The position numbers and the translations under genes were made by a program. Below, piece after piece: positions 195-16,248 of a DNA stretch of 46,832 nt; positions within the stretch are counted from its first letter, which is position 1; each line of letters opens with the position of its first letter. The stretch is from positions 1 through 46,832 of the forward strand of contig JAVZCK010000015.1 in the NCBI GenBank assembly GCA_038874435.1, read 5' to 3'. Below the pieces are notes generated by a model. The model had not been told where the DNA came from, did no database searches, and was given only the letters and a program-made list of their open reading frames with translations. The DNA comes from Thermoplasmata archaeon (GTDB lineage: Archaea > Thermoplasmatota > Thermoplasmata > Lutacidiplasmatales > SKW197).

Positions 195-231
195 TCGTGA
201 ACATTAAGAGATCAGTCATAAATGTTCACGA
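195..231. repeat. Perfect 11-bp inverted repeat at the 3' end of the 109-codon ORF
   Basis: TCGTGAACATT (195-205) and AATGTTCACGA (221-231) are exact reverse complements separated by 15 nt. The right arm spans the stop codon (226-228) of the leftward ORF, so the hairpin would form at the end of its transcript. A terminator role is possible. The ORF also seems to lose its family sequence just before this point, so a rearrangement end is an alternative. Confidence 0.5.
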
Positions 232-555
232 GGTTCCCGTATAGTTTACCGAAAAAATGTATGGAAGAATCATTCTTCCCAGGAAAGAGACCTTGATTGA
301 CTCCCTCCCCATCTCCTTTATTTTTTCCTTATCTCCATCAAAGAGGACAAGAGAAGCGTCGAAAAATTTGCCGAGGGTGGTGAGGGGCACATGGTCATGG
401 GAGTGCATTGACCTGATTTGTGATAATGAAATACCCATTTCCTTCAGTAGCTTATCAAGTTTGGCAACTCCCTCAAGTCCTTTTCTCTTCTTGATATATT
501 CTATATTTCCATGAATCATACCAGCTCTGCACCAACCATCTGTAATCTCCATCAT
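226..555 (-). pseudogene. Short, probably C-terminally truncated hypothetical protein
   Basis: The 109-aa product has a globular, non-membrane look and a motif-rich start (W8CRAG, HGNIEYIKKRKGLEG) resembling archaeal proteins of about 180 aa related to the DUF2378/heme-NO-binding-associated group. That resemblance is from memory and weak. If correct, about the C-terminal 40% is missing: the reading frame ends in a foreign-looking tail (VNYTGTS) beside an 11-bp inverted repeat, and none of the three leftward frames continues it. It could also be a genuine short gene. No function is assigned. Confidence 0.4.
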
Positions 556-737: not shown

Positions 738-3700
738 ATGAAAAATAGAAAGTTTATGCTTAGGGAAAATGAGAGCGGTATTTCGGAAGTGGTAGCTACT
801 TTGCTGGTGCTCGTGATTACAGTAACCCTATTTTCCTCAATCTTTGCATGGATTAACGCAATGCCTCCTCCGATGTCCAAAACCTACACAGAATTCTCTG
901 CAAAGCTAGATACTGTTTATGTTGCAGGCAACTACTCCTTCTATGTGAACATCACCCATGCAGGCGGAGAAATTTTGTACGCATCGGCAACCACAATTAT
1001 CATAAGGATCGAGAATTATTCTCAGAGTTTTACACTCGGGTTGAGTGACGGAGATAAGGATGGAACACTGACAGATGGAAAATGGGAGCCGGGAGAGGTA
1101 TGGCGATGGAATTCCGCCCCTACATACTCCAACACTTCTACGGTTATTGTGCAGATAATTGATAAAGTGAAAAACCTTCTCGTTTGGTCTAGCATCCTCT
1201 ATCCACAAATAACAGAAATTCCTCCTGCAATTCTGGAAAGGGGCGTATTACCAGACCCCGTTAGCATTGGGGGCAACTTCAAGGTATGGGCGAACGTAAA
1301 AGACGATGACCTGAACTTTGATTCGGTCTATGTGAACCTCTCTGCACTTGGAATATCAACACCAGTAAAAATGAATCAGACCTTTGGATGGAAATTTGAG
1401 ACCTCGAACATAACCTGCAATGCCCAGGCAGGCAAATACCTTGCACTTATAAATGCTACAGATACAATGGGGCATGTTTCCACTGCAACTCTCTCCATAA
1501 CCGTTAGTGCTGCAGCACAGGAAGAAACACAACCACCGAAGCTCATCGTTGAAAGGATTTTGCTCAGCAATTTCTCACCTACACGAGGCGACACAGTTAC
1601 AATTACTGCCATTATCAAAAACCTGAATTCAATGCCTGCAGTGTCATCTAATGTCTCATTCTGGGATTATATCCCTCTAACTGACACATGGAGCTACATC
1701 GGATGGGCGAATGTATCCGTTGCGGGCTATGGTCAGAGCCAGGCCTACATGTACTGGACTGCAACCCCTGGTGGTTTGCACAAGATTTTCGTGAACATCA
1801 CAAGTGTGATGCCAGGGAATAGCAATGGAATAGGAGCAAACATCTCTCTAGTTGTGACCCCAAAGATTCTGCTCGTGGATGATGATGGAGCGATAATGGG
1901 AAGTGGAAGCAACCTAGATGTCGCCTCCTATATGGCTGCTGCCCTGGATGCAGCTAACCTGAATTACCGAATTTATAGCGTCCCATTCGGGCTTGATGGA
2001 CCGAAGTACGATAGCGGTCCTGTAGAAACCCAGATGCAGTACTTTGATGTTGTGATTTGGGTCAGCGGTAACACAAATAATTCCCTTACTTCAAACGACA
2101 CTGCTGAATTGGTAAAATTCTTATCAGGCACTTCCACAGTACCTGCAGGCAAGCTTTGGTTGGTAGGAGAAAACATTCTAGAGGGTGTGAGCAGCACATT
2201 CATGAACTATATCGGAATAAATGGTCTCCTCCCTGCAATTTCTCTACCTGCTCAAATCTATGGGCAGAATCCTGGTGTAGGCTGGATAAATCTTTCCAAC
2301 TGCCAGCCCCTCATGGATGGCAGTACATTTTCAATAGTTAGGCCTATAAATCCCCTTGCAAGTTTGAATGTACAGGCAGTGTTTATGAATGGAAGTGCAG
2401 ATCAGTATTATGGGATTCAATACAAAAATGTGGTGAGTGGAAGAGAGTACAAGGTCGTTACATTCACATTTGAGTTTGCGGCAATGCGAGATATGGGAGA
2501 CCAGGCAATCACAGCGTACAAAGTGGTGAACTGGCTTTCAGGCCTAGGAAATAGAACTGGGGAAGATTTAGCAGTGGCAAGCCAGTATATAGTGCCAATA
2601 AATCCAAGATACATGCAACCAGTGAACATCTCTGCAACTGTGCGTAATAACGGTGCAAGCGTTCAAGCAAATGTGGAAGTTGTTGCCTATATTTATGTTA
2701 ACGGTGCATTACTGGATACAGTTTCGCCAGTTAATACATCAATCACATTACAGCCAGATGGAGGTTCTCAACTCGTGAATTTCACATGGGTGCCGAGGAT
2801 GGTTGGCACATATGTAATTCGTGTCGTGGTTGACCCCAACAACAAGGTCACAGAGACGAATGAGGACAACAATGCCCTCAGTACTGCGGTAGGGATACAC
2901 GAGATTAATGTGCTTTACACCTTGCTGGTAGTAGATGACGATTCTTCAGCAGAAAACGGTGGGGGAGGCACATTGCCCAATGTCGCTCAGTATGTGATTG
3001 ATGCTCTAACAAGCCTGGGTTATGTAAACGGCACAGATATGGATATCCAGAAGGTGCCAAGAGGAGCGGACAGGAACAACACAGAATATAATGTCACGAA
3101 TTATAATTGCATTCTTTGGGTTACTGGTTTTGCATCCAATGGTTCTGGTTACAATACCCTTACATCTACAGACATGCAGATAATCAAGGATTTCTATCTA
3201 CCATCTGACCCTGCACAGCACACCTTTATTCTCATTGGAAGAGAAGTGCTGGGAGATAGTGGTGTAAGCGGAACAGCATTTATGACCCAGGTCCTGGGTG
3301 CCGCGAGCGCAGGAACAAAGTACACGGACGGAGTTGGGAAAGTAGTTTATGGTGTGAAAGAGAGCCCTGTAACAAATGGAATGAGAGTTGAGTACACCAA
3401 TGGAACAAGCTTCCCATGCTATGCCTACACAAAAACAGCCTCTGCTATACCTCTGTTCTGGGCAAATGGCACCACTTATTGGGACAGAACAACGGATTTG
3501 GTGATGGGCACTGGTGTTAAAGACATTTCTGGCTGGCACTCTGCATTTCTTTCGTTTGATCTCTCCTATACAACCAATTTCTCTCTCGTAAAGGAAATTC
3601 TGTTTAACCTTATCCATTGGGGTGGTAGAGTTGATGCAATACCTGAACTTCGGGTCACTTCCCCTGACATTTACGCAGGAACAAACTCTAGGCCATACAT

Positions 3701-6700
3701 CATTCTTCCAGAACTCAATCCCCAGATTGGCTCTTCCTACCTTTTGAAAGCAAACATCACGAATGTCGGTGGTTTGAGTGGCGATGTGATTGTTCGCTTC
3801 CTTGATGGCGATACAATAATTAACTCGGTTAACATTCATGTGCCAGAAAGCTATGCAGATGCTTCCAACAATGTTTACAATGGCAAATGCGTGGCTGAGA
3901 TAATCTGGACACCGTTGTATGCGGGCTATGAGAGAATCTCCGCAATAATTGACCCGGACAATCTCTATGTTGGAAGCGAGAAGTTGCGTGAGAACAACAA
4001 CGCAAGCCAGCAAATTCAGGTCTTTTTCTTCTACGATGATATGGAGGTGCCTGAACGAACTGCAGAAAACTGGAACCATGATGCAACACTGCTTAATATC
4101 AATGGCGAAAGCCCGCTTGATTTTCTTGCAAGAAAAGATGTGAGCACGCGGGTAATTGGGGACTGGGACTGGAATGTGAGCGGGAGCCAGGATTTTAACG
4201 GTACCACGACATTCAATGGCAATGGCACCTATCTCACAAACAATGCCACGGTACTGAACTACACAGGAGGCGCTGCCCACACTACACCAACTGCGTACTG
4301 GTTGCCTGAAACCCAAGGAAGAGTGACCATAAAGAGGAATGCAGATGTAATAATGATGTTCGACGTATCAGGGAGTATGTCATGGGACTTGCAAACTAGA
4401 ATGTATGCGGCGAAAGCGGCAGGAGGAATATTATTAGACACCCTAAATGAGGGGGATAGAGCAGCACTTGCCCGCTTCAATACACAGTCATATTTAAATA
4501 TTAGATTTACGTCTAATTTAGGAACGGTAAGACAGAGCGTTCTCTCTCTGTTCCCGGGTGGAGGTACAGCATTTTTAGATGCGACTGCTGTATCTGTCCG
4601 GTATGCTACAGGTGTGCCTTCTACATGGTCGTGGGCGAATAATTTCAACTACAACGATCATAATACATCAAACTTCCCAGCGGCAATAGTTCTCACAGAT
4701 GGACAGACGAACTCAGATCAAACATTTACTACATATGATTCATGTATAAGCGAAATTACAAAATATGATGTAGCATTGTTTACGATTGCATTTGGTGGTG
4801 ACGCAGATAGGGCAAACATGTGGAGATTGGCGTATGCAATGAATCATACTGGGAAGTCAAATGCAAATTACAGCAAACATTTCAATGTATCTACACCTGC
4901 TGAGTTAATCACGGCGTTCAAAGAGATATCTGCGATAATAAAGGAGGCTGCGGGGGGCGATGTGAGAGTACCATTGTTGGCACCTACAAAGGTGCGTCCT
5001 AAGGCGGTGGAGACAGTATATGCTCAGAACTTCGAGTTAGGCAGTGATTGGAGTATTGGAGGAACGGGTGCAAGCTGGGCAGTGGGACAACCAACTACAT
5101 GGGTAGGCGGAGCCCATAGTGGTACGCGATGTGCAGCAACAAACTTAGGAGGAAACTATAATGACGGAGAGGCCTCTTGGTTTTGCTCGCCGCTTATTAA
5201 TCTCACAGCTTACAAAAATGGAAACGTTACACTCACATTTTGGGCAGCATACAATTTTTACCATTGGTCATACTATTGGGCAGGATATCCATATAGAGAT
5301 TATTATGACCACGCCCTGCTTCAGGTATCAATAGATGGAGGAGTTACATGGACCGTATTGCACAGTTTCCCAGACGAAAATGCAGATGGTAATGGACAGT
5401 TAGCTAGTTGGAGACAATATACAATAAACTTGACACAGTATGTGGGGAAGGAAATATACCTAAGGTTTACTATGCAGGATGACGACAATGTAGTTTACAG
5501 TTATTCGGTTCAAGGGAACGATAGGAACAGTGGGATCTATATTGATGATATCACAATAACTGCAGAGAGGGGAGAAAATGATGGAGTAGACATTGGCTAC
5601 ACACTCTTCCCAGCACACTATCGGTTCCTTACAACACCAGCAGTGCGTGTGGGCACGCCATACCTTTCCTTCTGGAACTATGCATCTGGGAGTTATGAAA
5701 CAGGGAATCTACCAGATCATGTTGTGGTAATTGACTATGAGAATCACTATTATTGGTTGTACAACGATACAGGTGCAGTAGCATTTGAGGGCAACTTTGT
5801 GGTGCTCCAGAACAATTCTTACACAGGGAATGCGAGCAAAACTGGTGCATTGAATGTTGCACCTGTAACCTGCCTCTACAATCCCACACCAAGCCAGGAT
5901 GTATGGTTTAACATAAACGATTACTACGGCTGGAAGATATTTTCACTTCCTGCGGTTCCACACGCAGTAACAGATATGCTCATTGCATGGGAGGACCTGT
6001 GGGGCACAGTGCCAAACAACCAGATAGATGGTAACGGTGACCAATGGGTGCGGGTCACATTGTTAGATGATGGCACCTTCCGCGTAGTGCCTTACAGGGC
6101 AAGCGGTGGATATGAGCATGATTTCTTTATAGGTTCAGATTGGGTGTACATAAAGCATCATGGGGAGGCCTGGAGCAATGGAGCAGGCACATCAGCAGAC
6201 CCATACAAGGAAGTTACAGTGGTGCCCAGTGGTCAGCGTTTCCCTGTTTTCATGCGGAAATCAGAGGGAGGAATTTTGAGTTTTTACACAAAATACAGCA
6301 TTACACCAGGAACAAATGGTGGTTTCCTCTATCTTTGGGGAAGCACGGATGGCAGGACTTGGGTGTGGGATAGAAATCATAGAGTGTATCTCTCACCCAG
6401 GCAACCTTACAACGGAAATTTGAAGATGGATGCATTAACCAATGAAACCACAACGGGAGGACTAACTGGTAATGGTTGGATAGACATAGATGGAAAAATG
6501 CCCTACTGGTGTTTCAACGGCAAGAGTGCAGGTGGCACTTACGGCTGGGAGAAGATAGAGGTGGATTTGGCGAAGTATGTGCGAACATTTGCGTCAATAA
6601 GGATTGTGTTTGTATTTGCACAGTTTGGAGGAATGTTGCCACCAGAGTGGAGACCAGATATGGGATGGTATATAGACGATGTGCAGATTCGGGTGAGAGG

Positions 6701-7397
6701 TGGTGTGCCGGACTACTGGAAGATAGTAGAGAATGCATCTCAAGCCCGTAGTGGAAGCAGGTTTTGGTATTTCAATTCACCTAGCGATTATCTCCCACTC
6801 GGTGTGGATTCCTCACTCTACACAATTCCAATTGATTTAACGAGAGCCTACAGAGCCACGCTCATTGCCTTCTTCAAATTCAACATCAACGATGGTGCTG
6901 GCTTACCGCCAGATGGAGTGAGAGTAGAGGTAAGCAAAGACAATGGCGAGACATGGTATTCCATAACATATGGTGTGAGAATTGGTTGGGGTTACACAGG
7001 AAGAGATTTAACTACAGTTGAAAACCGTGGTTACTATGGAGTTACAGGTGATGCCACAGGTGGAGAATTGCCGCAACGCTATTCTGGTGTGAGAGGGACA
7101 CTCTACAAGACGAACTGGACATTTGTGCGAGCGAGCGATGCCAATACAGTGTCAGCGTATGATTGGGTGCCATCATTCACGCTTGTAAGGCTGAACTGTG
7201 ATTTGAGTGGATTTGCAGGCAACACAATAATCTTGAGGATAAGAGTGTTCACAAATGCCACAGGTAGCGAAACCGATGCCGTACACTATGCCAGTGCCAG
7301 CTACAACAAAGGCGTCTTTGTAGACGATGTGTTTGTGATTGGTAACTCCATAATCCATGGACTGCAGGGAGGTGGTGAACGATGCGCAAGGCCATGA
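738..7397 (+). CDS. Giant type IV pilin-like surface protein with CARDB and vWA domains (paralogue 1)
   Basis: The 2219-aa product begins with a short basic leader and a class III prepilin signal: Gly14 before ISEVVATLLVLVITV, then a hydrophobic helix to about residue 40. No other membrane segment is evident. Order of modules: Ig-like domains (about 50-260), a CARDB-like domain, an alpha/beta domain starting PKILLVDDDG (about 375-600), a CARDB domain (about 620-725), a second LLVVDDD domain (about 730-970), a beta domain, a von Willebrand A domain with MIDAS DVSGS at Asp1209, then MAM/jelly-roll-like domains with repeated YIDD motifs to the C terminus. Many N-glycosylation sequons are present. 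Known archaeal pilins are about 100-200 aa, so a pilus-tip or surface adhesin is inferred. Paralogue 2 follows with a 16-bp overlap. Confidence 0.85.
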   Translation: MKNRKFMLRENESGISEVVATLLVLVITVTLFSSIFAWINAMPPPMSKTYTEFSAKLDTVYVAGNYSFYVNITHAGGEILYASATTIIIRIENYSQSFTLGLSDGDKDGTLTDGKWEPGEVWRWNSAPTYSNTSTVIVQIIDKVKNLLVWSSILYPQITEIPPAILERGVLPDPVSIGGNFKVWANVKDDDLNFDSVYVNLSALGISTPVKMNQTFGWKFETSNITCNAQAGKYLALINATDTMGHVSTATLSITVSAAAQEETQPPKLIVERILLSNFSPTRGDTVTITAIIKNLNSMPAVSSNVSFWDYIPLTDTWSYIGWANVSVAGYGQSQAYMYWTATPGGLHKIFVNITSVMPGNSNGIGANISLVVTPKILLVDDDGAIMGSGSNLDVASYMAAALDAANLNYRIYSVPFGLDGPKYDSGPVETQMQYFDVVIWVSGNTNNSLTSNDTAELVKFLSGTSTVPAGKLWLVGENILEGVSSTFMNYIGINGLLPAISLPAQIYGQNPGVGWINLSNCQPLMDGSTFSIVRPINPLASLNVQAVFMNGSADQYYGIQYKNVVSGREYKVVTFTFEFAAMRDMGDQAITAYKVVNWLSGLGNRTGEDLAVASQYIVPINPRYMQPVNISATVRNNGASVQANVEVVAYIYVNGALLDTVSPVNTSITLQPDGGSQLVNFTWVPRMVGTYVIRVVVDPNNKVTETNEDNNALSTAVGIHEINVLYTLLVVDDDSSAENGGGGTLPNVAQYVIDALTSLGYVNGTDMDIQKVPRGADRNNTEYNVTNYNCILWVTGFASNGSGYNTLTSTDMQIIKDFYLPSDPAQHTFILIGREVLGDSGVSGTAFMTQVLGAASAGTKYTDGVGKVVYGVKESPVTNGMRVEYTNGTSFPCYAYTKTASAIPLFWANGTTYWDRTTDLVMGTGVKDISGWHSAFLSFDLSYTTNFSLVKEILFNLIHWGGRVDAIPELRVTSPDIYAGTNSRPYIILPELNPQIGSSYLLKANITNVGGLSGDVIVRFLDGDTIINSVNIHVPESYADASNNVYNGKCVAEIIWTPLYAGYERISAIIDPDNLYVGSEKLRENNNASQQIQVFFFYDDMEVPERTAENWNHDATLLNINGESPLDFLARKDVSTRVIGDWDWNVSGSQDFNGTTTFNGNGTYLTNNATVLNYTGGAAHTTPTAYWLPETQGRVTIKRNADVIMMFDVSGSMSWDLQTRMYAAKAAGGILLDTLNEGDRAALARFNTQSYLNIRFTSNLGTVRQSVLSLFPGGGTAFLDATAVSVRYATGVPSTWSWANNFNYNDHNTSNFPAAIVLTDGQTNSDQTFTTYDSCISEITKYDVALFTIAFGGDADRANMWRLAYAMNHTGKSNANYSKHFNVSTPAELITAFKEISAIIKEAAGGDVRVPLLAPTKVRPKAVETVYAQNFELGSDWSIGGTGASWAVGQPTTWVGGAHSGTRCAATNLGGNYNDGEASWFCSPLINLTAYKNGNVTLTFWAAYNFYHWSYYWAGYPYRDYYDHALLQVSIDGGVTWTVLHSFPDENADGNGQLASWRQYTINLTQYVGKEIYLRFTMQDDDNVVYSYSVQGNDRNSGIYIDDITITAERGENDGVDIGYTLFPAHYRFLTTPAVRVGTPYLSFWNYASGSYETGNLPDHVVVIDYENHYYWLYNDTGAVAFEGNFVVLQNNSYTGNASKTGALNVAPVTCLYNPTPSQDVWFNINDYYGWKIFSLPAVPHAVTDMLIAWEDLWGTVPNNQIDGNGDQWVRVTLLDDGTFRVVPYRASGGYEHDFFIGSDWVYIKHHGEAWSNGAGTSADPYKEVTVVPSGQRFPVFMRKSEGGILSFYTKYSITPGTNGGFLYLWGSTDGRTWVWDRNHRVYLSPRQPYNGNLKMDALTNETTTGGLTGNGWIDIDGKMPYWCFNGKSAGGTYGWEKIEVDLAKYVRTFASIRIVFVFAQFGGMLPPEWRPDMGWYIDDVQIRVRGGVPDYWKIVENASQARSGSRFWYFNSPSDYLPLGVDSSLYTIPIDLTRAYRATLIAFFKFNINDGAGLPPDGVRVEVSKDNGETWYSITYGVRIGWGYTGRDLTTVENRGYYGVTGDATGGELPQRYSGVRGTLYKTNWTFVRASDANTVSAYDWVPSFTLVRLNCDLSGFAGNTIILRIRVFTNATGSETDAVHYASASYNKGVFVDDVFVIGNSIIHGLQGGGERCARP

Positions 7398-10300
7398 AAG
7401 GAGTAAGCAGCATCATTGGCACCTTTCTCGTGCTCGTGATTACGGTAGTGATATTCTCAACAATTTTTGCCTGGGTGCAAACATTTCCAACTCCCCAGCC
7501 CCGTGCAAACACGCAATTTGATGCAGAGGCATGGTATGAGGAAGCGGGTACTGGATCAGGATATTATGCGAATGTGAACCTAACGCACATTGCAGGTGAG
7601 CTGCTTCCGACAAGCTATATCAGAATAGTGGTTGAGACCGAGAATGGAACAAGATTCTATCTACAACCAAGTGATGGTGGAATTACTGGGCAGTATTGGG
7701 ATTTAGGTACTGTCTGGAAATGGAAATCTTCTGCGTTGTTCACAGTCCCTCAGAACCTTACAATCCAGGTTATAAATACTGCAAAGAATCTCCTTTTCTG
7801 GCAGAAACTCATAATTGTTAACAACATCTGGTATCCACCACTAATTCAAGCTTCTGGTAGCTCGCCAACCCCGGTTGTGGCAGGGAATCCATTTAAAATC
7901 TGGGCGGATATTTATGACTTTGATCTCAACCCAAATTCTGTGTATGCCGACCTGACCCAGCTAGGGTTGGGCATAGTTAAACTAAATAACACTGCAGGGA
8001 CGAGATTTGAAACTGCAGAGCTGACAACTTTTGTGAATCCAGGCACATACACATACACAGTCAATGCAAGTGACTATCAAGAGCACAGGAGTTTGAGAAA
8101 GTATTCCATTACAGTTGTAGTTTCGGCGGTAGAGGTTCCACTGCCAAATCTCGTGGTGAGTCAGATCTCTCTAAGTCCTTCCTCTCCAACCCGAGGAGAG
8201 ACGGTAATTATCTCCGCAATCATCAAAAATTTTCAGAGCACACCTGCATCCTCAGCAACAATCACCACTTTTGATACGATTGTGGCTACGAATGCAACCA
8301 CAACCCTTGACACGCAGGTAATTTCTGTGCCGGGCTTTGGAGAAACAGAGATTTATATCACATGGGTGGCACAACCAGGAGGTGCGCACATAATTGAAGT
8401 TACAATTACAGATGTGATGCCTGGCAATCTTACAGGCACGCCAAAAAATGTTTCGGTTGTGGTAATGCCTCGCATTCTCTTCGTGGATGATGATGGTGCA
8501 GGGATTGGGAGTCCAAATGATATGGGGGCGAATTTTATTGCTGCACTTAATGCAATCAATGTAAACTACACATCTACAACAGTGGCTCTAAACTCTCCAG
8601 GGCCAGGATACGATACAGGGCCAGCTCTTTACCAACTGAGAAATTATGATGTAGTAATCTGGGAAGGTGGTTTTACAAACAACACGCTCATGGCATCGGA
8701 TGTGGCAAACCTTCAAAGATTCCTTGACAATGGGGGGAAGCTCTGGTTGGCGGGAGCGAACATTCTCGAGAATGTATCTGGGAGTTTTATAAATACCTAT
8801 CTTGGAATCTCAGGAGTGTTACCCGCATCTACACTACCTTCTAAAATCTACGGCACGAACTATGGTAATGGATGGATAAACCTGACAGGATTTGAACCAA
8901 GCATAAACACAATTAGCTTTGCAGTTACGAGAACGCTATCAATTGCTGCGGGTGCACAGCCCTTACTGGTTAACGAAACAGGTGCCTTGAAATTTGCGAG
9001 TCAGTTTAAGAGAACTGCAGGTGTTTATGAAAGCAGAGTTGTTCTGCTCTCCCTGGAATTTGGGTCACTTAGGTACACTGGCGACCACGCCATTCTTGCC
9101 TATCACATAATTAACTGGCTGTCTGGCATTAATGCAAGGACCGGTGATGATCTGGCAATTTCGAGCCAGGAAATCTCCACGCTCACTCCAAGGTACAGGG
9201 AGCCGCTCAATGTGAGTGCGGTAGTGCGTAACAATGGTGACACAAGCCATTCAGATGTGGAAGTGCAGCTGATTGTCTATGCCTATGGTGTTGAGGTGGA
9301 GCGAGTGTGGCCTGTAAGTGGGCAAACAATTTCTCTCAATGCGTTTGGAGATTCAAAAACTGTGAATTTTACATGGACACCGAGGATTGTGGGAATTTTT
9401 GTGTTGCAAGTAATGGTTGACCCCTACAACAAAATTCCAGAGGTGAATGAAAACAACAATGTGTACAATAACACACTCTTGCTTAATCAGGTGAATGTGA
9501 TTTACACGATGCTTGTTGTGGACGATGACGGCTCAGCCAATAATGGTGGGGGCTTGCCTGATGCATCAAGCGAAATCATAAATGCAATGCAGACGCTTGG
9601 CTACACGCTTGGGCGTGATATGGATGTCCAGATAGTTCCTAGGGGTGCAGATAGAAATAATTCTGAGTACAACATGAACAGGTACAATTGCGTAATCTGG
9701 ATTACAGGAACCGCATACAACGGCTCTGGCTACAACACACTCACAGCAACGGACATTAATCTAATCCAGAACTTCTATCTCACAGATGACCCGAGCCAGC
9801 ATGCGTTAATAATTATTGGCTCTTTCATTCTCAACGACTCTGCAGTTGCAAATACAGCATTCATGCGGAACATTCTCGGAGCCAACAACACTGGCACACC
9901 AGTAAACTACGGCTTAAACAATGTGCTCTATGGAGTACGAGAGAGCCCGATAACAAACGGTCTGGAATTTGTGATGAGCAATACATCCTTCGCAAGCTAT
10001 CCTGCAAGGGCATACAACAGAACAGAGAGGGCACTGCCGGTGTTCTGGGGTGATGCAATAAATCACTGGGATAGATTGAGCGATAATGTGCTAGGCTCTG
10101 CTGTGTTTGACGCAGCGGGCTGGCATTCTGTCTTTCTCTCGTTCAACCCAGCATACACTGCAAACAGGACAATGATTTCAGAAATCATGCTGAGCATTGT
10201 GCACTGGTGTGGAAGAATTGATGCAAAGCCAGAAATAAAGATAACTGCACCTGATATTTATGCAGCAACGCATTCACGAGCTTACATCTACCTTCGTGAT

Positions 10301-13300
10301 CTAAACCCACAGCTCGGTGCCACTTACCTTCTCAAAATTAACATTACAAATCTGGGTGGATTGAATGCATCTGTTACCATCAGATTCCTTGATGGCGATA
10401 CAGTGATTGGGGCAAGAAATGTGAATGTACCGCCGAGCAGTACAAATGCCACTGGTTATGTGTCCAATGGCAGGGCAGTTTCCGAGGTGCTCTGGGTACC
10501 ACTTTTTGTAGGTTATGAAACGATTAGGGTGATGGCAGACCCAGACGGAATTTATGCAAATGCAGAGTTCATCAGGGCAAACAACAATGCGAGCCAGAGA
10601 ATCCAGGTCTTTTTCTTCTACGATGATATGGAAGTGCCAGAGCGAACAGCAGAAAACTGGAACCATGATGCAACACTGCTTAATATCAATGGTGAAAGCC
10701 CGCTTGATTTTCTTGCAAGAAAAGATGTGAGCACGCGGGTAATTGGAGACTGGGACTGGAGTTTGAGCGGGAGCATAAATCGCTCTGGGCTTACTCTCAA
10801 TGGCAACGGAACCTATCTCACAAATAATGCTACTGTTTTCAACTACACAAAGGGTGCAGCCCACACAACACCGACAGCATACTGGTTGCCAGAGGTACCA
10901 AATCTTCCTGGTGTGACGGGAGAACGAGCACCCCTCGATATCTTTCTAGTCCTTGACAACTCGGGCTCAATGGCTGAAGACCCAGATGGAGACGGGAGAA
11001 CAAAGTGGCAGGACCTGGTGGATGCTGTTACTAATTCAATTTTGAATTATCTTACCGCAAATGACTACATAACTGTAATTGCATTCGGGGATAGAAACCA
11101 GAATCTTGACCAGGTTGTGTTCACAGACATGGGAGTGACAGCGAGCAGATACAATTCAGACCTCAAGTCAGATAATGGAGATAATGAAGCAGTGCACATC
11201 TGGGTTGCAAGAAGCTTGGCAACAACTGCTACAAAACAGACAATTGTGAATTATCTCACTAATCCCGCACTTGGAATGACACCTGTGCTTGCAGGTAGAT
11301 ACGATACTCCAATCTGGGACGCAATAGGTGTTGGCATCGCCTATGCAAGATACTACAACAAGACCTTTGATTTTGCAAACGGAATTTTGCCAAGTGTGAT
11401 CGTACTCTCAGATGGTATGGACTGGGGGAAGTACAGAGGAACGGGAGCGAAGGTCGGTGAAACGGACCTGGGTGGTAACAGAGGACCTGATGGAGGTAGT
11501 GAATTCTTTGGCCCATGGAGGTCCTGGTCTCTCGGTGACCAAACAGTGAATGGCGAAGTTACTTTATGTGCAGATTTCACAGCGTATGAGAACTGGTTCC
11601 CAATTACATTCTCAAATGCGGATAAAACTCGATGGGGCTTGATTGATACCTTCACCTCTACAGATGCCTGGGTTCACGTCCCAGTGTTCACAGTCGGACT
11701 TGGTGTGACCCATTTTGAGCATCCATCACTCGGGAAACTTGACACCAATCATTATGGCCAGGCGGCAGGGACACCAGAATACTGGCTCTGGAAAATTTCA
11801 AACACTTCTGCAGCTAAATTCACGAATTTGAGTTACGATGGGTATTTCTACGCCTCTCAATCCTCGCAGCTGAGCGGAATCTTTGCAGCAATAATGGCAT
11901 CAATTGGTGCACCTGGGGACATAAGGGCACCGCCGCCAGTGCCGAATAAAAATTCAAAGTTCACACCAAATGCAGTGGATACAACGACCCTTTTCTTTGA
12001 CGGATTCGAATCTGGCATTGGAGGCTGGACGGCGATTGGCGGAAACTGGGCGCAGAGCAATGCACAAAAATACAAAGGCACATACAGCTTGAAATACACA
12101 GGAGATAATACCGCAGGTAATGATTACATTCGTACTGCATCAGCAGTAACAATTCCCTCGGACATTGATTGGGCAATTGTAGCACTCTGGTCATACTACT
12201 ATCTTGCATGGGATAAGCAAGCTTCTGGCAACAATGCAGTGTATATCCCAAAAAACAACTGGACAATAGAGGTGAGCACGAGCACAGGTGGTCCCTGGAC
12301 AAGGGTAGCACCCTTGCATTGCTTCACGCCACTGAATGAAACAAGCACAACAGATGATGAATGGGTGCCAAATGCCTTTGACCTCACGAAATACAAGGGC
12401 CAGAGCATTTACCTCAGAATTGCAATGTACGATACTGGGATAAACGCCGGGGAGTATGCATACTTTGATGAATTCCGAGTTGTTTATGGAAAATCTCCCA
12501 GTGCTGCAAGTTCTCAACTCAATTATACAATTCCCTACAAGCGTTATCGGTTCCTCACAACGCCAGAAGTAAACATAAGCGGCGCTCCTAATGCCACGCT
12601 TTCCTTCTATACCAGATACTCCATCACAGAGGGTACAAACGGAGGATTCATCTATCTCTGGGGCAAGCAATCTGGTGAGACATCGTGGACCTGGGATGCC
12701 TCCCACAGAGTTTACATTCAGCCAAAGCAGCCGTATGGAGGTAATCTCAAGTTTGAGAGCGTTGAGAATGAGAGCACTGTCGGTGGCATAGATGGAAATA
12801 CTGGATTGATAGATAGATATGGACGCTTGCCTTACTGGTGCTTCAATGGGAGGAGTGCAGGTGGTACTTACGGCTGGGAGAAGATAGAGGCTGATTTAAG
12901 TAAATACATAGGGACATTCACGGCGGTGCGTGTGGTCTTTGTGTTCGCACAGTTCGGAGGGCAGTTACCGCCAAACTGGACCGCTGACATGGGCTGGTAT
13001 ATAGACGATGTGCAGATAAAGGTGACAGGGATTCCTACAGATTACTGGCAGTATGTGTATAACCCTGGTGGAGGATATCTCGGGAGCAACAGATACTGGT
13101 ATTACAATCAGGCATCTGGCTATCTCCCACTCGGTGTGGATTCCTCACTCTACACAATTCCAATTGATTTAACGAGAGCATACAGGGCAACACTCATTGC
13201 CTTCTTCAAATTCAACATCAACGATGGTGCTGGCTTACCGCCAGATGGAGTAAGGATAGAGGTGAGTAAGGACAATGGCGAGACATGGTATTCCATTACA

Positions 13301-13708
13301 TACGGTGTGAGAATTGGCTGGGGATATACAGGAAGAGATTTAACTACAGTTGAAAACCGTGGTTACTATGGAGTTACAGGTGATGCCACAGGTGGAGAAT
13401 TGCCGCAGCGTTATTCTGGTGTGAGAGGGACACTCTACAAGACGAACTGGACATTTGTGCGAGCGAGCGATGCCAATACAGTGTCAGCGTATGATTGGAT
13501 ACCATCATTCACGCTTGTAAGGCTGAACTGTGATTTGAGTGGATTTGCAGGCAACACAATAATCTTGAGGATAAGAGTGTTCACAAATGCCACAGGGAGC
13601 GAGACAGATTCTATCCACTATGCGAGTGCCAGCTACAACAAAGGCGTCTTTGTAGACGATGTCTTCGTGATTGGCACAACAATAACACATGGGATATCAA
13701 AACCATGA
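7382..13708 (+). CDS. Giant type IV pilin-like surface protein with CARDB and vWA domains (paralogue 2)
   Basis: The 2108-aa product starts MRKAMKG followed by VSSIIGTFLVLVITV, a class III signal with predicted cleavage after Gly7. The ATG lies inside the end of paralogue 1 and is preceded by GGGAGGTGG, a strong Shine-Dalgarno, so the two are translationally coupled. Domain order parallels paralogue 1: Ig-like, CARDB, LFVDDDG and LVVDDDG alpha/beta domains, CARDB, a vWA domain with MIDAS DNSGS at Asp1192 and an adjacent DPDGDG calcium-type loop, then jelly-roll domains ending VFVDDVFVIG. The vWA part is unrelated in sequence to that of paralogue 1, while the last 190 residues are almost identical. 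No C-terminal anchor is seen. The N-terminal helix would insert it in a pilus or the membrane. Confidence 0.85.
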   Translation: MRKAMKGVSSIIGTFLVLVITVVIFSTIFAWVQTFPTPQPRANTQFDAEAWYEEAGTGSGYYANVNLTHIAGELLPTSYIRIVVETENGTRFYLQPSDGGITGQYWDLGTVWKWKSSALFTVPQNLTIQVINTAKNLLFWQKLIIVNNIWYPPLIQASGSSPTPVVAGNPFKIWADIYDFDLNPNSVYADLTQLGLGIVKLNNTAGTRFETAELTTFVNPGTYTYTVNASDYQEHRSLRKYSITVVVSAVEVPLPNLVVSQISLSPSSPTRGETVIISAIIKNFQSTPASSATITTFDTIVATNATTTLDTQVISVPGFGETEIYITWVAQPGGAHIIEVTITDVMPGNLTGTPKNVSVVVMPRILFVDDDGAGIGSPNDMGANFIAALNAINVNYTSTTVALNSPGPGYDTGPALYQLRNYDVVIWEGGFTNNTLMASDVANLQRFLDNGGKLWLAGANILENVSGSFINTYLGISGVLPASTLPSKIYGTNYGNGWINLTGFEPSINTISFAVTRTLSIAAGAQPLLVNETGALKFASQFKRTAGVYESRVVLLSLEFGSLRYTGDHAILAYHIINWLSGINARTGDDLAISSQEISTLTPRYREPLNVSAVVRNNGDTSHSDVEVQLIVYAYGVEVERVWPVSGQTISLNAFGDSKTVNFTWTPRIVGIFVLQVMVDPYNKIPEVNENNNVYNNTLLLNQVNVIYTMLVVDDDGSANNGGGLPDASSEIINAMQTLGYTLGRDMDVQIVPRGADRNNSEYNMNRYNCVIWITGTAYNGSGYNTLTATDINLIQNFYLTDDPSQHALIIIGSFILNDSAVANTAFMRNILGANNTGTPVNYGLNNVLYGVRESPITNGLEFVMSNTSFASYPARAYNRTERALPVFWGDAINHWDRLSDNVLGSAVFDAAGWHSVFLSFNPAYTANRTMISEIMLSIVHWCGRIDAKPEIKITAPDIYAATHSRAYIYLRDLNPQLGATYLLKINITNLGGLNASVTIRFLDGDTVIGARNVNVPPSSTNATGYVSNGRAVSEVLWVPLFVGYETIRVMADPDGIYANAEFIRANNNASQRIQVFFFYDDMEVPERTAENWNHDATLLNINGESPLDFLARKDVSTRVIGDWDWSLSGSINRSGLTLNGNGTYLTNNATVFNYTKGAAHTTPTAYWLPEVPNLPGVTGERAPLDIFLVLDNSGSMAEDPDGDGRTKWQDLVDAVTNSILNYLTANDYITVIAFGDRNQNLDQVVFTDMGVTASRYNSDLKSDNGDNEAVHIWVARSLATTATKQTIVNYLTNPALGMTPVLAGRYDTPIWDAIGVGIAYARYYNKTFDFANGILPSVIVLSDGMDWGKYRGTGAKVGETDLGGNRGPDGGSEFFGPWRSWSLGDQTVNGEVTLCADFTAYENWFPITFSNADKTRWGLIDTFTSTDAWVHVPVFTVGLGVTHFEHPSLGKLDTNHYGQAAGTPEYWLWKISNTSAAKFTNLSYDGYFYASQSSQLSGIFAAIMASIGAPGDIRAPPPVPNKNSKFTPNAVDTTTLFFDGFESGIGGWTAIGGNWAQSNAQKYKGTYSLKYTGDNTAGNDYIRTASAVTIPSDIDWAIVALWSYYYLAWDKQASGNNAVYIPKNNWTIEVSTSTGGPWTRVAPLHCFTPLNETSTTDDEWVPNAFDLTKYKGQSIYLRIAMYDTGINAGEYAYFDEFRVVYGKSPSAASSQLNYTIPYKRYRFLTTPEVNISGAPNATLSFYTRYSITEGTNGGFIYLWGKQSGETSWTWDASHRVYIQPKQPYGGNLKFESVENESTVGGIDGNTGLIDRYGRLPYWCFNGRSAGGTYGWEKIEADLSKYIGTFTAVRVVFVFAQFGGQLPPNWTADMGWYIDDVQIKVTGIPTDYWQYVYNPGGGYLGSNRYWYYNQASGYLPLGVDSSLYTIPIDLTRAYRATLIAFFKFNINDGAGLPPDGVRIEVSKDNGETWYSITYGVRIGWGYTGRDLTTVENRGYYGVTGDATGGELPQRYSGVRGTLYKTNWTFVRASDANTVSAYDWIPSFTLVRLNCDLSGFAGNTIILRIRVFTNATGSETDSIHYASASYNKGVFVDDVFVIGTTITHGISKP

Positions 13709-13752: not shown

Positions 13753-14136
13753 ATGGCATGGAACCTCTGGCGAAATTACGGACACATTCTCTCAATCCTC
13801 ATCATAGTTTTATCTGCAATCCTGACTTTCTTGGGTGTCTGCGGATTTGAGCAGATAAAAAATGTAATGCCTGAGCAGATAAAAGCAATTGAGAACGCAA
13901 TAGGCAACTTTTACCTATGGTGCATCATTTTAGGGCCATTTCTCCTCCTAATCTTTGGCTGGCTTCTAATAGATTATTACAGCAAGAAGAGGGAATTTGA
14001 GAAACTCATAGACACTCAGAGCAAGGCACAATTCATAAAGAATTTACAGAGGATTGAAGAACTAGCTTTTTCCCTTCCCGAGCGATACGAGAAGAAAATA
14101 GAAAAGAAAAAAATTGAGCTGAAGGTCAAGCTCTGA
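13753..14136 (+). CDS. Small two-TM membrane protein with a charged C-terminal helix
   Basis: The 127-aa product has two hydrophobic segments (about 10-30 and 52-74) and a basic, helical C-terminal tail of about 50 residues rich in Lys and Glu. That is the layout of a membrane-anchored coiled coil facing the cytoplasm. It starts 44 nt after paralogue 2 in the same direction with a weak GTGTAAAGG upstream, so it may belong to the same transcript and serve the giant surface proteins. That role is inference. No family is recognised with certainty. It ends 4 nt from the convergent phospholipase-D-fold gene. Confidence 0.7.
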   Translation: MAWNLWRNYGHILSILIIVLSAILTFLGVCGFEQIKNVMPEQIKAIENAIGNFYLWCIILGPFLLLIFGWLLIDYYSKKREFEKLIDTQSKAQFIKNLQRIEELAFSLPERYEKKIEKKKIELKVKL

Positions 14137-14140
14137 TCAA

Positions 14141-16186
14141 TCATAGCTTGCACCTCAGCCAACTAACAAATTTTTTCACTCTCTTTTCCATCCCACCAAA
14201 CTTCCATCCAACAATTGCCCCGAGCAGGATAGGAAGGAGAACATAGAGCCAGTTTTGATTTTCCTCCGCATGCACAGATTCAACCGCAGACACAGTAATC
14301 TCTCTAGATGTAGCGTTTTCATTTCCACAAGCATCAACAACTTTCAAAGTTACTCTGTATTTTCCAGGCGAGGGGAATGTGTAGTTCACTAATGCGCCAC
14401 TTGCCTCAAATACACCATCTCCATTGAAATCCCAGAGATAGGAAACAATTTTTCCATTGTCGGTGGACCCTGAACCATCGAATCTTACTGTTTTATTGAC
14501 CACAATTTTTGCGGGTACTCCTATGTAGGCAGAGGGCTTTCGTACATCCTCCTTCCAGTCAAATTCAAAGACACCATTAAAATAACTCGCAATTGCCTTA
14601 CTCTCAATTAAAACACCCACTTCTCTGTTATCTTTGAACGAATTCTCACAGAAATTTGTGCTCCCAAGGTACACATAGGCATCATCAATAATGAATCCCT
14701 TTGTGTGGAGCATTCTGTAGCCATGTCCTCTAGCGTCAATAATCCTAGTGGAGATGTTTTTGTTCAACGAATTAAGATACTCTACAGTTTCTCTGTTTCC
14801 CTTTCCATTTGCCGCACTTCCATCTAGTAGAACTCTAACGGATACGCCTTTTTCAGAGAGTTTCACAAGTTTTTCCACAAATGGATTCACCACATTTCCC
14901 CAGTATAGTGGAAACTCCAATGCTTCTACGACCACGCTGTTCTTAGCAGAGGCTAGGCAGCGAAGGAGGTACTCTTGTGCATTGTCTGGTGCAGCAAGTA
15001 ATGTCACATTGGAGACATCGGCTCTGGTTGTGAAATTTGAAAGTGTAGGGTTGAAATCTTTCACAGGAACAGAATTAGTTGTAAGGATTGTTTGCACTCC
15101 GGTATCTCCGTAAATGTTTTTTGCATCCTGATTAAAGAGCGAGATAAGCTGCTGAGCAAACTCAGAGTTTTCCACTATTACACCCCAGCCCCTGTTTCCG
15201 CATAGGCCCTGCTCTATATAGCTTGTTCCTTTGTAGTTTTCAGTGCTCACAACCGCCCATTTTCCATCAATCACAATGTATTTGGCATGCATGTAATTGT
15301 ATCTGGTGTGTTTTGGTATTCCATAAAAGGTAAGGTTAGCAAAACCAGAAAGTTTTGAGAGCATGAATTTCTCTGCATTACCCAATCCTCCGACAGGAGA
15401 ACCTTCAACAATTACACTTACGCATACATTTCTTTTGCTTGCATTTTCCAACGCATAAACAATTTCTGGTGAATCCAATGTGTATGTGCAGACAAGGATT
15501 TCCCTTGTGGCATTCTCAATTCTCTGAAGCACAACTTCCAAGCCACTATCAGGCGTCACGAAAGCAGTTAGATTTACATTCGTAAATCTCGTAGGAACAA
15601 GTGCAGTTCTTCCAATTCTTGTCGTGGTCCAGTCATTTGCGGTATCCGTGTCCTTAACTGTCAACCTCTTGTAAACCGTTCCAACTGACGGATTTTTCAG
15701 CATACTTCCATTCCAACCCTCCTGCACTCTTTCTTTGCCATAGGCAATTGCATCTACTAGAGAGCCATCAGGGGCATAAAGGTAAATCTCATCGTTTGAA
15801 TTTGCAAGTTTAAATAGCCCCTTTACAGATACATCTTTTCCATTTTTGATTTCAATATCTGGCAGTTTCTCAAAATAATAGTAATAGCTAGAAGCATTGT
15901 TTGCAAGTGTGATGCAAGAGTATGCGGGAATTTCAACATCTCCAAACACAATTTTTCCCTCTCCATCAGAAAGCGAGAACCCGTTTAAGCAGAGAGCAGG
16001 GCCTGTGTTCTTCAATACCACATACTCAAGTCCATTTTCACAATTGGGTGCGAATTCCCAAATTAGCAGTTTTTTTTCTCCAACGGCCAAACATACATTT
16101 TGTTCGCCCTGCACTGCAACACCAAGAAAGCACTCGCTGATTATCAGAGCACCGATCAGTGTCCAGATTACTCCTTTTTGCTTCAT
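14141..16186 (-). CDS. Secreted, membrane-anchored phospholipase-D-fold protein (LTD, two HKD, PKD)
   Basis: The 681-aa product has an N-terminal signal peptide (MKQKGVIWTLIGALIIS), a lamin-tail-like domain (about 30-170), then two PLD-superfamily halves with intact HKD motifs: HAKYIVID...STENY and HTKGFIID...GSTNF. A PKD domain with YLWDFNGDG follows (about 550-640), and then a C-terminal TM helix with a basic tail. The two HKD motifs make one phosphodiesterase active site acting outside the cell, on DNA or phospholipid. Start M at 16186 is chosen over 16219 because it opens a clean signal peptide and a TATA box lies about 22 nt upstream, giving a leaderless message. Confidence 0.88.
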   Translation of the reverse strand: MKQKGVIWTLIGALIISECFLGVAVQGEQNVCLAVGEKKLLIWEFAPNCENGLEYVVLKNTGPALCLNGFSLSDGEGKIVFGDVEIPAYSCITLANNASSYYYYFEKLPDIEIKNGKDVSVKGLFKLANSNDEIYLYAPDGSLVDAIAYGKERVQEGWNGSMLKNPSVGTVYKRLTVKDTDTANDWTTTRIGRTALVPTRFTNVNLTAFVTPDSGLEVVLQRIENATREILVCTYTLDSPEIVYALENASKRNVCVSVIVEGSPVGGLGNAEKFMLSKLSGFANLTFYGIPKHTRYNYMHAKYIVIDGKWAVVSTENYKGTSYIEQGLCGNRGWGVIVENSEFAQQLISLFNQDAKNIYGDTGVQTILTTNSVPVKDFNPTLSNFTTRADVSNVTLLAAPDNAQEYLLRCLASAKNSVVVEALEFPLYWGNVVNPFVEKLVKLSEKGVSVRVLLDGSAANGKGNRETVEYLNSLNKNISTRIIDARGHGYRMLHTKGFIIDDAYVYLGSTNFCENSFKDNREVGVLIESKAIASYFNGVFEFDWKEDVRKPSAYIGVPAKIVVNKTVRFDGSGSTDNGKIVSYLWDFNGDGVFEASGALVNYTFPSPGKYRVTLKVVDACGNENATSREITVSAVESVHAEENQNWLYVLLPILLGAIVGWKFGGMEKRVKKFVSWLRCKL

Positions 16187-16203
16187 GATGATTGCATCGC
16201 TGA

Positions 16204-16213
16204 AGTAAATATA
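16204..16213 (-). promoter_or_regulatory. TATA box of the PLD-fold gene
   Basis: On the minus strand TTTATATTTAC precedes ATG 16186 by about 22 nt with no Shine-Dalgarno between. This spacing fits leaderless transcription and decides the start codon. It lies inside the longer reading frame that begins at 16219, which argues against that upstream start. Confidence 0.55.
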
Positions 16214-16248
16214 AACCAAGGCACTACATGTAGGGCTAAATGTAGGGT

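What the first reader, a model, noticed from the sequence alone, without database searches (positions are those of the whole stretch)
738..13708. Two tandem mega-pilins: class III signal fused to 2.1-2.2 kaa multi-domain adhesins
Seen: both proteins begin with a prepilin-type motif (a Gly followed by ISEVVATLLVLVITV or VSSIIGTFLVLVITV) and contain vWA domains with complete MIDAS residues. Known: archaeal type IV pilins are normally about 100-200 aa. Inference: these act as oversized pilus-tip or surface adhesins, with the vWA domains binding a metal-dependent ligand. They are translationally coupled and followed by a small two-TM protein that may help assembly. This is the strongest candidate for an undescribed system here.
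Basis: partly seen in the sequence, partly recalled or inferred. Interest (0 to 1): 0.75.

Follow-up and report, generated by a model that had tools for sequence, protein, structure and literature searches.

The report
Tandem giant pilins with swappable tips
Two neighbouring archaeal genes encode pilus-type proteins more than ten times the usual size, each a constant stalk carrying an interchangeable binding module; relatives occur across a whole class of archaea and look like the archaeal version of bacterial pilins that carry a sticky module at the pilus tip.

Summary
A1 (738-7397, 2219 aa) and A2 (7382-13708, 2108 aa) start with an archaeal type IV pilin module: both pass Pfam's Pilin_N cut-off, the family profile matches solved archaeal pilus subunits, and both have a class III processing site. 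Each carries a vWA domain with the full metal-binding triad. The genome has a T4P operon with two ATPases and two platform proteins, an archaellum operon, a PibD-type peptidase, small ordinary pilins and a second giant tandem pair. Giants of 1000-2650 aa are widespread in Thermoplasmata, often in arrays of 2-4, and two loci place them in or beside a T4P operon. In 32 relatives a constant stalk (about 1130 aa) and C-terminal cap (about 335 aa) flank a payload of 66-1169 aa. Synonymous-site evidence shows gene conversion between A1 and A2 on both sides of the payload. The sister species' A1 keeps 88% of the stalk but has a different vWA, although that contig ends soon after. Best reading: modular pilins assembled by the T4P machine, probably at the tip, with a payload slot renewed by recombination. 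Polymerisation and ligand are untested. The downstream two-TM DUF3198 gene is not conserved there. New variant of a known kind.

The parts
738..7397 (+). Giant modular pilin A1, 2219 aa
   Evidence: open frame; Pilin_N, CARDB, VWA_2 over curated cut-offs
738..776 (+). A1 leader, residues 1-13, ending E-S before GISEVV
   Evidence: fits charged -2 and G/A/S -1 rule
777..860 (+). A1 hydrophobic N-terminal helix, residues 14-41
   Evidence: predicted helix 14-41 at low to moderate confidence; family profile aligned with solved archaeal pilins
888..1199 (+). A1 pilin beta head, residues 51-154
   Evidence: predicted strands 51-154; profile positions 5-117 match 8fj5
1227..4307 (+). A1 stalk: Ig-like, CARDB-like, alpha/beta (ILLVDDDG), CARDB, second alpha/beta (LLVVDDDS), CARDB-like
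   Evidence: AlphaFold2 secondary structure, mean pLDDT 75 for residues 1-1190, residues after 1100 unreliable; Pfam CARDB 610-715; profile matches 2l0d, 2kl6
4347..5027 (+). A1 vWA module, first part of the variable payload
   Evidence: VWA_2 and VWA over cut-off on the payload; MIDAS DVSGS/T/D
5028..6263 (+). A1 distal payload, MAM/InhA-like beta modules
   Evidence: weak Pfam matches below curated cut-off
6264..7355 (+). A1 C-terminal cap, beta rich
   Evidence: conserved block in 32 giants
4002..4307 (+). Left gene-conversion tract in A1, residues 1089-1190
   Evidence: 49/50 aa and 16/19 four-fold sites identical to A2 in residues 1089-1138; boundary at YWLPE 1191
6783..7232 (+). Right gene-conversion tract in A1, residues 2016-2165
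   Evidence: 67/75 four-fold sites identical to A2; quartet 63 sites for within-genome pairing against 5 for orthology
7382..13708 (+). Giant modular pilin A2, 2108 aa
   Evidence: open frame; Pilin_N and CARDB over cut-off
7382..7402 (+). A2 leader MRKAMKG, cleavage predicted after Gly7
   Evidence: fits the rule
7403..7474 (+). A2 hydrophobic N-terminal helix
   Evidence: Pilin_N residues 6-87
10589..10894 (+). Left gene-conversion tract in A2 (approximate)
10943..11701 (+). A2 vWA module (MIDAS DNSGS/T/D); end approximate
   Evidence: VWA_2 matches below cut-off; motif positions
12596..13696 (+). A2 C-terminal cap
13115..13564 (+). Right gene-conversion tract in A2 (approximate)
13753..14136 (+). 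Two-TM DUF3198 protein; probably not part of the system
   Evidence: Pfam PF11433; not linked to the giants in the sister genome

Best explanation
A1 and A2 are giant modular type IV pilins. They are inserted via Sec, processed by a PibD-type peptidase and handed to the genome's two-ATPase/two-platform T4P machine, probably as minor, tip-located subunits because heads of this size would not pack along a filament. A stalk of Ig, CARDB and alpha/beta domains projects a vWA (MIDAS, metal-dependent) payload and a beta-rich cap that bind a surface or partner. Tandem copies exchange sequence through their conserved flanks, homogenising the ends and allowing payloads to be replaced, so the cell keeps several binding specificities on one carrier. 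Shown by sequence: pilin module, machinery, stalk/payload/cap plan, conversion tracts. Inferred: processing, polymerisation, tip position, adhesion, and payload exchange as the result of the conversion.
For: Pilin_N over cut-off. The stalk profile matches solved pilus subunits 8fj5 (E 5e-8, nearly the whole pilin), 8gi2 (Natrinema PilA2) and 9myg. 56 of 66 giants fit the charged/GAS processing rule, and 45 of 52 complete ones have no C-terminal TM. T4P operon: pilin-like 318 aa, ATPase, TadC, TadC, ATPase. A giant sits directly upstream of the same partner-ATPase-TadC-TadC-ATPase order in L077, and giants sit beside partners, two ATPases and two TadC in L024. The payload profile matches S. sanguinis PilB 7b7p (E 7e-5) and Mfa5 6tnj. 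Constant stalk (CV 6%) and cap (CV 12%) with a payload of 66-1169 aa (CV 59%) in 32 giants. Conversion: cap 63 against 5 sites for within-genome pairing, stalk 62 against 676. The A1 ortholog has an 88% stalk but 32-38% vWA, while A2 orthologs keep 88% vWA.
Against: No experiment shows processing or polymerisation. The giants are not next to the T4P operon in this genome. Seven of 52 complete giants, including B1 of the same genome, have a C-terminal TM-like stretch, which fits a two-ended membrane anchor better than a pilus tip. The payload structure model was poor (mean pLDDT 44.6). The vWA replacement rests on one gene whose sister contig ends about 120 aa after the boundary in Nextera adapter sequence; A2 and, as far as its truncated sister contig reaches, B1 keep the same payload in both species.
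Confidence: 0.6

Rival explanations
1. Membrane-anchored surface adhesins or sheath proteins that use a class III signal and pilin-like helix only to be exported and held in the membrane, without polymerising, comparable with the proposed Sulfolobus bindosome.
For: Archaeal class III signals are used by large non-pilin proteins (bindosome subunits, PMC4371748). Some giants have a C-terminal TM as well. Thermoplasmatales carry an unidentified ~20 nm protein layer (PMC12448462).
Against: The giants contain a whole pilin module homologous to filament subunits, not just a signal, and two loci put them with T4P ATPases and TadC proteins. No substrate-binding-protein domain was found.
Confidence: 0.28
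2. Payload divergence reflects ordinary fast evolution under selection, and the similar ends reflect purifying selection, not exchange.
For: The cap is also conserved between distant species, and aa identity (99%) exceeds nt identity (84%).
Against: At four-fold sites A1 and A2 match at 33/34 in residues 2095-2154, against 14/30 and 15/31 for orthologs, and the pattern is independent in both genomes. A2 vWA is 88% conserved between the same two genomes in which A1 vWA is 32-38%.
Confidence: 0.25
3. Archaellum-associated or secreted matrix proteins unrelated to T4P.
For: An archaellum operon is present.
Against: The N-terminus matches Pilin_N, not the archaellin family, and no giant was seen beside archaellum genes in the sampled loci.
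Confidence: 0.05

Closest known systems
Modular type IV pilins, type example PilB of Streptococcus sanguinis (PMC8179133)
   Same: Pilin module carrying a vWA with MIDAS; detectable homology of the vWA; proposed tip adhesin
   Different: Archaeal Pilin_N instead of the bacterial IPR012902 motif; 2.1-2.2 kaa instead of 454 aa, where the most extreme case that survey names has 860 aa; long constant stalk and cap; tandem arrays with gene conversion
CdiP pilus of Cuniculiplasma divulgatum (PMC12448462)
   Same: T4P machine with two ATPases and a split platform, pilins remote from the machinery; pili end in hooks of unknown composition
   Different: Known pilin CdiPB is 135 aa; no giant pilin is reported there
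PilY1/PilC tip adhesins and DUF2341 proteins of archaeal T4P (PMC4858521)
   Same: Large multi-domain adhesins, in PilY1 with a vWA, proposed at the pilus tip
   Different: Not pilins; neither domain was found in A1/A2
Bindosome of Sulfolobus (PMC4371748)
   Same: Oversized class III proteins assembled with T4P-like components
   Different: Sugar-binding domains; no such domain here
VARTIG of Thermococcales (PMC8416519)
   Same: Large archaeal Ig/CARDB surface proteins with a recombining variable part
   Different: Variable part is the C-terminal Ig domain and exchange is between species; here the variable part is internal, the C-terminus is conserved and exchange is seen between tandem copies
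Two relatively large pilins of the Haloferax PilB4/PilC4 locus (PMC4371748)
   Same: A pair of large class III proteins with T4P genes
   Different: No domain data given; not compared here

Membership tests
Archaeal type IV pilin (Pilin_N) | Class III processing site before the hydrophobic helix (G/A/S at -1, charged at -2) | tested here: met
   A1 ES|G, A2 KG|V; rule from PMC4371748; FlaFind itself not run
Archaeal type IV pilin (Pilin_N) | Homology to pilins over helix and head | tested here: met
   Pfam over cut-off; profile matches 8fj5, 8gi2, 9myg
Archaeal type IV pilin (Pilin_N) | Cognate peptidase, ATPase and platform in the genome | tested here: met
   peptidase: Arc_PepC_II over cut-off, Peptidase_A24 just below
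Archaeal type IV pilin (Pilin_N) | Assembly into a filament | not testable with these tools
   needs pili
Modular pilin | Pilin module fused to a domain not specific to T4P | tested here: met
   vWA, CARDB
Modular pilin | Bacterial IPR012902-type N-terminal motif used in the survey | tested here: not met
   only the archaeal Pilin_N found; works like, but not a member of, the bacterial set
Modular pilin | Metal binding and ligand adhesion by the vWA | not testable with these tools
   MIDAS residues present
Bindosome subunit | Substrate-binding-protein domain | tested here: not met
   no such Pfam match
PilY1-type adhesin | PilY1 beta-propeller or DUF2341 | tested here: not met
   no Pfam match
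VARTIG | Variable C-terminal Ig domain with sorting signal | tested here: not met
   C-terminal cap is conserved, variable part internal

The most novel reading that the evidence does not exclude
Class-wide tandem arrays of giant pilins form an archaeal ligand-variation system: payloads are swapped by recombination between conserved flanks, so pilus-tip specificity is renewed without touching the assembly module.
Probability: 0.42. Interest if true: 0.78.

Novelty: new variant of a known kind. Interest (0 to 1): 0.62.

Why it matters
Archaeal T4P have been described with small pilins and tip structures of unknown composition (for example the hooks of CdiP pili). A common class of giant pilins in Thermoplasmata gives concrete candidates for tip adhesins, extends the modular-pilin idea to archaea at several times the reported size, and provides a carrier/payload system in which the exchange of binding domains can be followed in genomes.

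Tried and rejected
DUF3198 as partner: single copy, unlinked in the sister genome. Foldseek of the stalk model: best matches have TM-scores of 0.2 or less, i.e. generic strings of beta domains, not used. AlphaFold2 of payload plus cap: mean pLDDT 44.6, not used. phmmer of the A1 vWA alone against the PDB: no match; only the profile finds relatives. Sigma-70 and terminator scans: at the shuffled expectation and the wrong promoter type for archaea. Horizontal transfer of the A1 payload from another family: considered because relatives in family f12 share the distal module (residues 1600-1842) at 48-52%, but cap and stalk end are about as similar (43-62%) while the vWA is only 24-26%, so no transfer is claimed. 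Misassembly as the cause of the similar ends: unlikely, since A1 and A2 still differ at 16% of nucleotides there.

Full report
WHAT IS THERE. Two open frames overlap by 16 nt on the + strand: A1 738-7397 (2219 aa) and A2 7382-13708 (2108 aa). An ATGA overlap at 7394-7397 offers a second start for A2. A TATA-like stretch (TTTATATA, 660-667, read from the sequence) precedes A1, and the genes are probably one transcript. The genome holds 2.16 Mb in 43 contigs. A close relative of the same genus is the Thermoplasmata MAG SKW197 (JAOAJK01): its contigs match handle G001 by length. The same genome has a second pair, B1/B2, on contig C19 (L012 3503-9895 and 9873-15482, 2130 and 1869 aa), and small Pilin_N pilins on C4.

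PILIN IDENTITY. Pilin_N is over the curated cut-off in both proteins. The stalk profile (19 rows) finds solved archaeal pilus subunits: 8fj5 over profile positions 5-117, E 5e-8, and 8gi2 and 9myg. The homology therefore covers helix and head, not just a signal. The processing rule (G/A/S at -1, charged residue at -2; PMC4371748) is met by A1 as ES|GISEVV and by A2 as KG|VSSII. By my own scan it is met by 56 of 66 giants. The AlphaFold2 model of A1 1-1190 (mean pLDDT 75, pTM 0.57) gives a helix at 14-41, a beta head, then Ig, CARDB-like and two alpha/beta domains. The helix itself has low to moderate confidence, and residues after 1100 are not reliable.

MACHINERY. Contig C1 carries a 318-aa pilin-like protein, ATPase (T2SSE), TadC, TadC and a second ATPase. 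C8 carries an archaellum operon. C6 carries a peptidase with the archaeal A24 C-terminal domain over cut-off, Peptidase_A24 just below it, and the two expected Asp motifs. Two ATPases with a split platform is the arrangement reported for the hook-tipped CdiP pilus (PMC12448462).

DISTRIBUTION. Pilin_N occurs in 220 of 300 genomes of the class. Among the 150 best listed matches, 51 lie in frames of 130-300 aa and 72 in frames of 1000 aa or more, the largest 2652. That list is ranked by score and is not a random sample. In 40 fetched loci, tandem giants are common, with three in L083 and L094 and four in L080. In L077 a giant directly precedes partner-ATPase-TadC-TadC-ATPase. In L024 giants flank partner genes, two ATPases and two TadC. 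In L085 a giant neighbours the same partner family. One scan of 84,980 species with two short peptide patterns found the family in Thermoplasmata only, plus one marginal bacterial hit; its sensitivity is limited.

ARCHITECTURE. In 32 giants with both marker blocks, the stalk is 1067-1360 aa (CV 6%), the payload 66-1169 aa (CV 59%) and the cap 240-374 aa (CV 12%). A vWA begins about 50 aa after the stalk in 16 of 20 payloads scanned at E of 0.01 or better, many below Pfam's curated cut-off. Some payloads add Big_5, MAM-like or other Ig modules; B1 has no vWA. The payload profile finds S. sanguinis PilB (7b7p) and the fimbrial protein Mfa5 (6tnj) among other vWA proteins.

RECOMBINATION. With A1, A2 and the two SKW197 orthologs, informative sites in the stalk favour orthology 676 to 62. 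In the last 180 residues of the cap they favour within-genome pairing 63 to 5. At four-fold sites in residues 2095-2154, A1 and A2 agree at 33/34 and the SKW197 pair at 29/31, against 14/30 and 15/31 between species. A second tract lies at the end of the stalk (A1 1089-1138, 16/19 four-fold sites). B1 and B2 show high identity in the matching places. Several pairs elsewhere show the same order, with stalk and cap more alike than payload, but without the synonymous-site signal. Between A1 and its SKW197 ortholog, identity drops from 29/30 to 10/26 residues at position 1191, although the A2 vWA is 88% conserved between the same two genomes. A search of the whole SKW197 assembly for the A1 payload finds nothing at E of 1e-6 or better. 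The caveat is that the SKW197 contig ends about 120 aa later in adapter-derived sequence and A1 is split by an assembly gap, so this is one suggestive case, not proof.

HOW IT PROBABLY WORKS. Export by Sec, cleavage by the PibD-type peptidase, and use as a minor pilin; by size most likely at the tip, as argued for bulky modular pilins (PMC8179133, PMC9934059). The stalk holds the vWA and cap away from the cell. Binding of a metal-dependent ligand is inferred from the MIDAS. Recombination between neighbours keeps the flanks alike and can move payloads.

KNOWN OR NEW. Modular pilins with vWA are known in bacteria; that survey used a bacterial motif, and the most extreme case it names is 860 aa. 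I found no paper in the held library that describes giant archaeal pilins, though most subscription journals are missing from it. The finding is a new variant of a known kind, widespread and apparently undescribed, and the tandem payload-slot plan is its most interesting part.

Noticed in passing
L012:3503-15482: Second giant pair B1/B2 in the same genome; B1 lacks a vWA and ends in a TM-like stretch
   Followed up: partly
L012:1-3345: Repeated ORF pieces (NLRACDFTD..., DINQEFPTSIFFDGDRDMSNNGLPATWPGGGTNR...) upstream of B1, looking like a decayed tandem array
   Followed up: no
L014 end and L015 start: SKW197 contig ends translate to MCIRDR and LSLIHI, the mark of Nextera adapter left in the assembly, exactly where the giant gene is broken
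   Followed up: partly
window 226-555 (-): 109-aa ORF beside A1 is a shortened version of a 189-aa ORF at the same place in L015 (4194-4763); possible frameshift or pseudogene
   Followed up: no
L013:6809-7792: Transposase-like ORF next to the small pilin genes
   Followed up: no
L081, L093, L095, L101, L108: Another class of giants (1250-1440 aa) with pilin N-terminus but no stalk-end or cap block, mostly with a C-terminal TM and basic tail
   Followed up: partly
L042:5116-6072, L077:14206-15006, L085:10012-10932: A 270-320 aa pilin-like partner (weak DUF7289 match, motif YVPxWM) accompanies T4P genes or giants; candidate dedicated minor pilin
   Followed up: partly
window 14141-16219 (-): Secreted protein with phospholipase-D-like and PKD-like sequence next to the giants (read by eye)
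   Followed up: no
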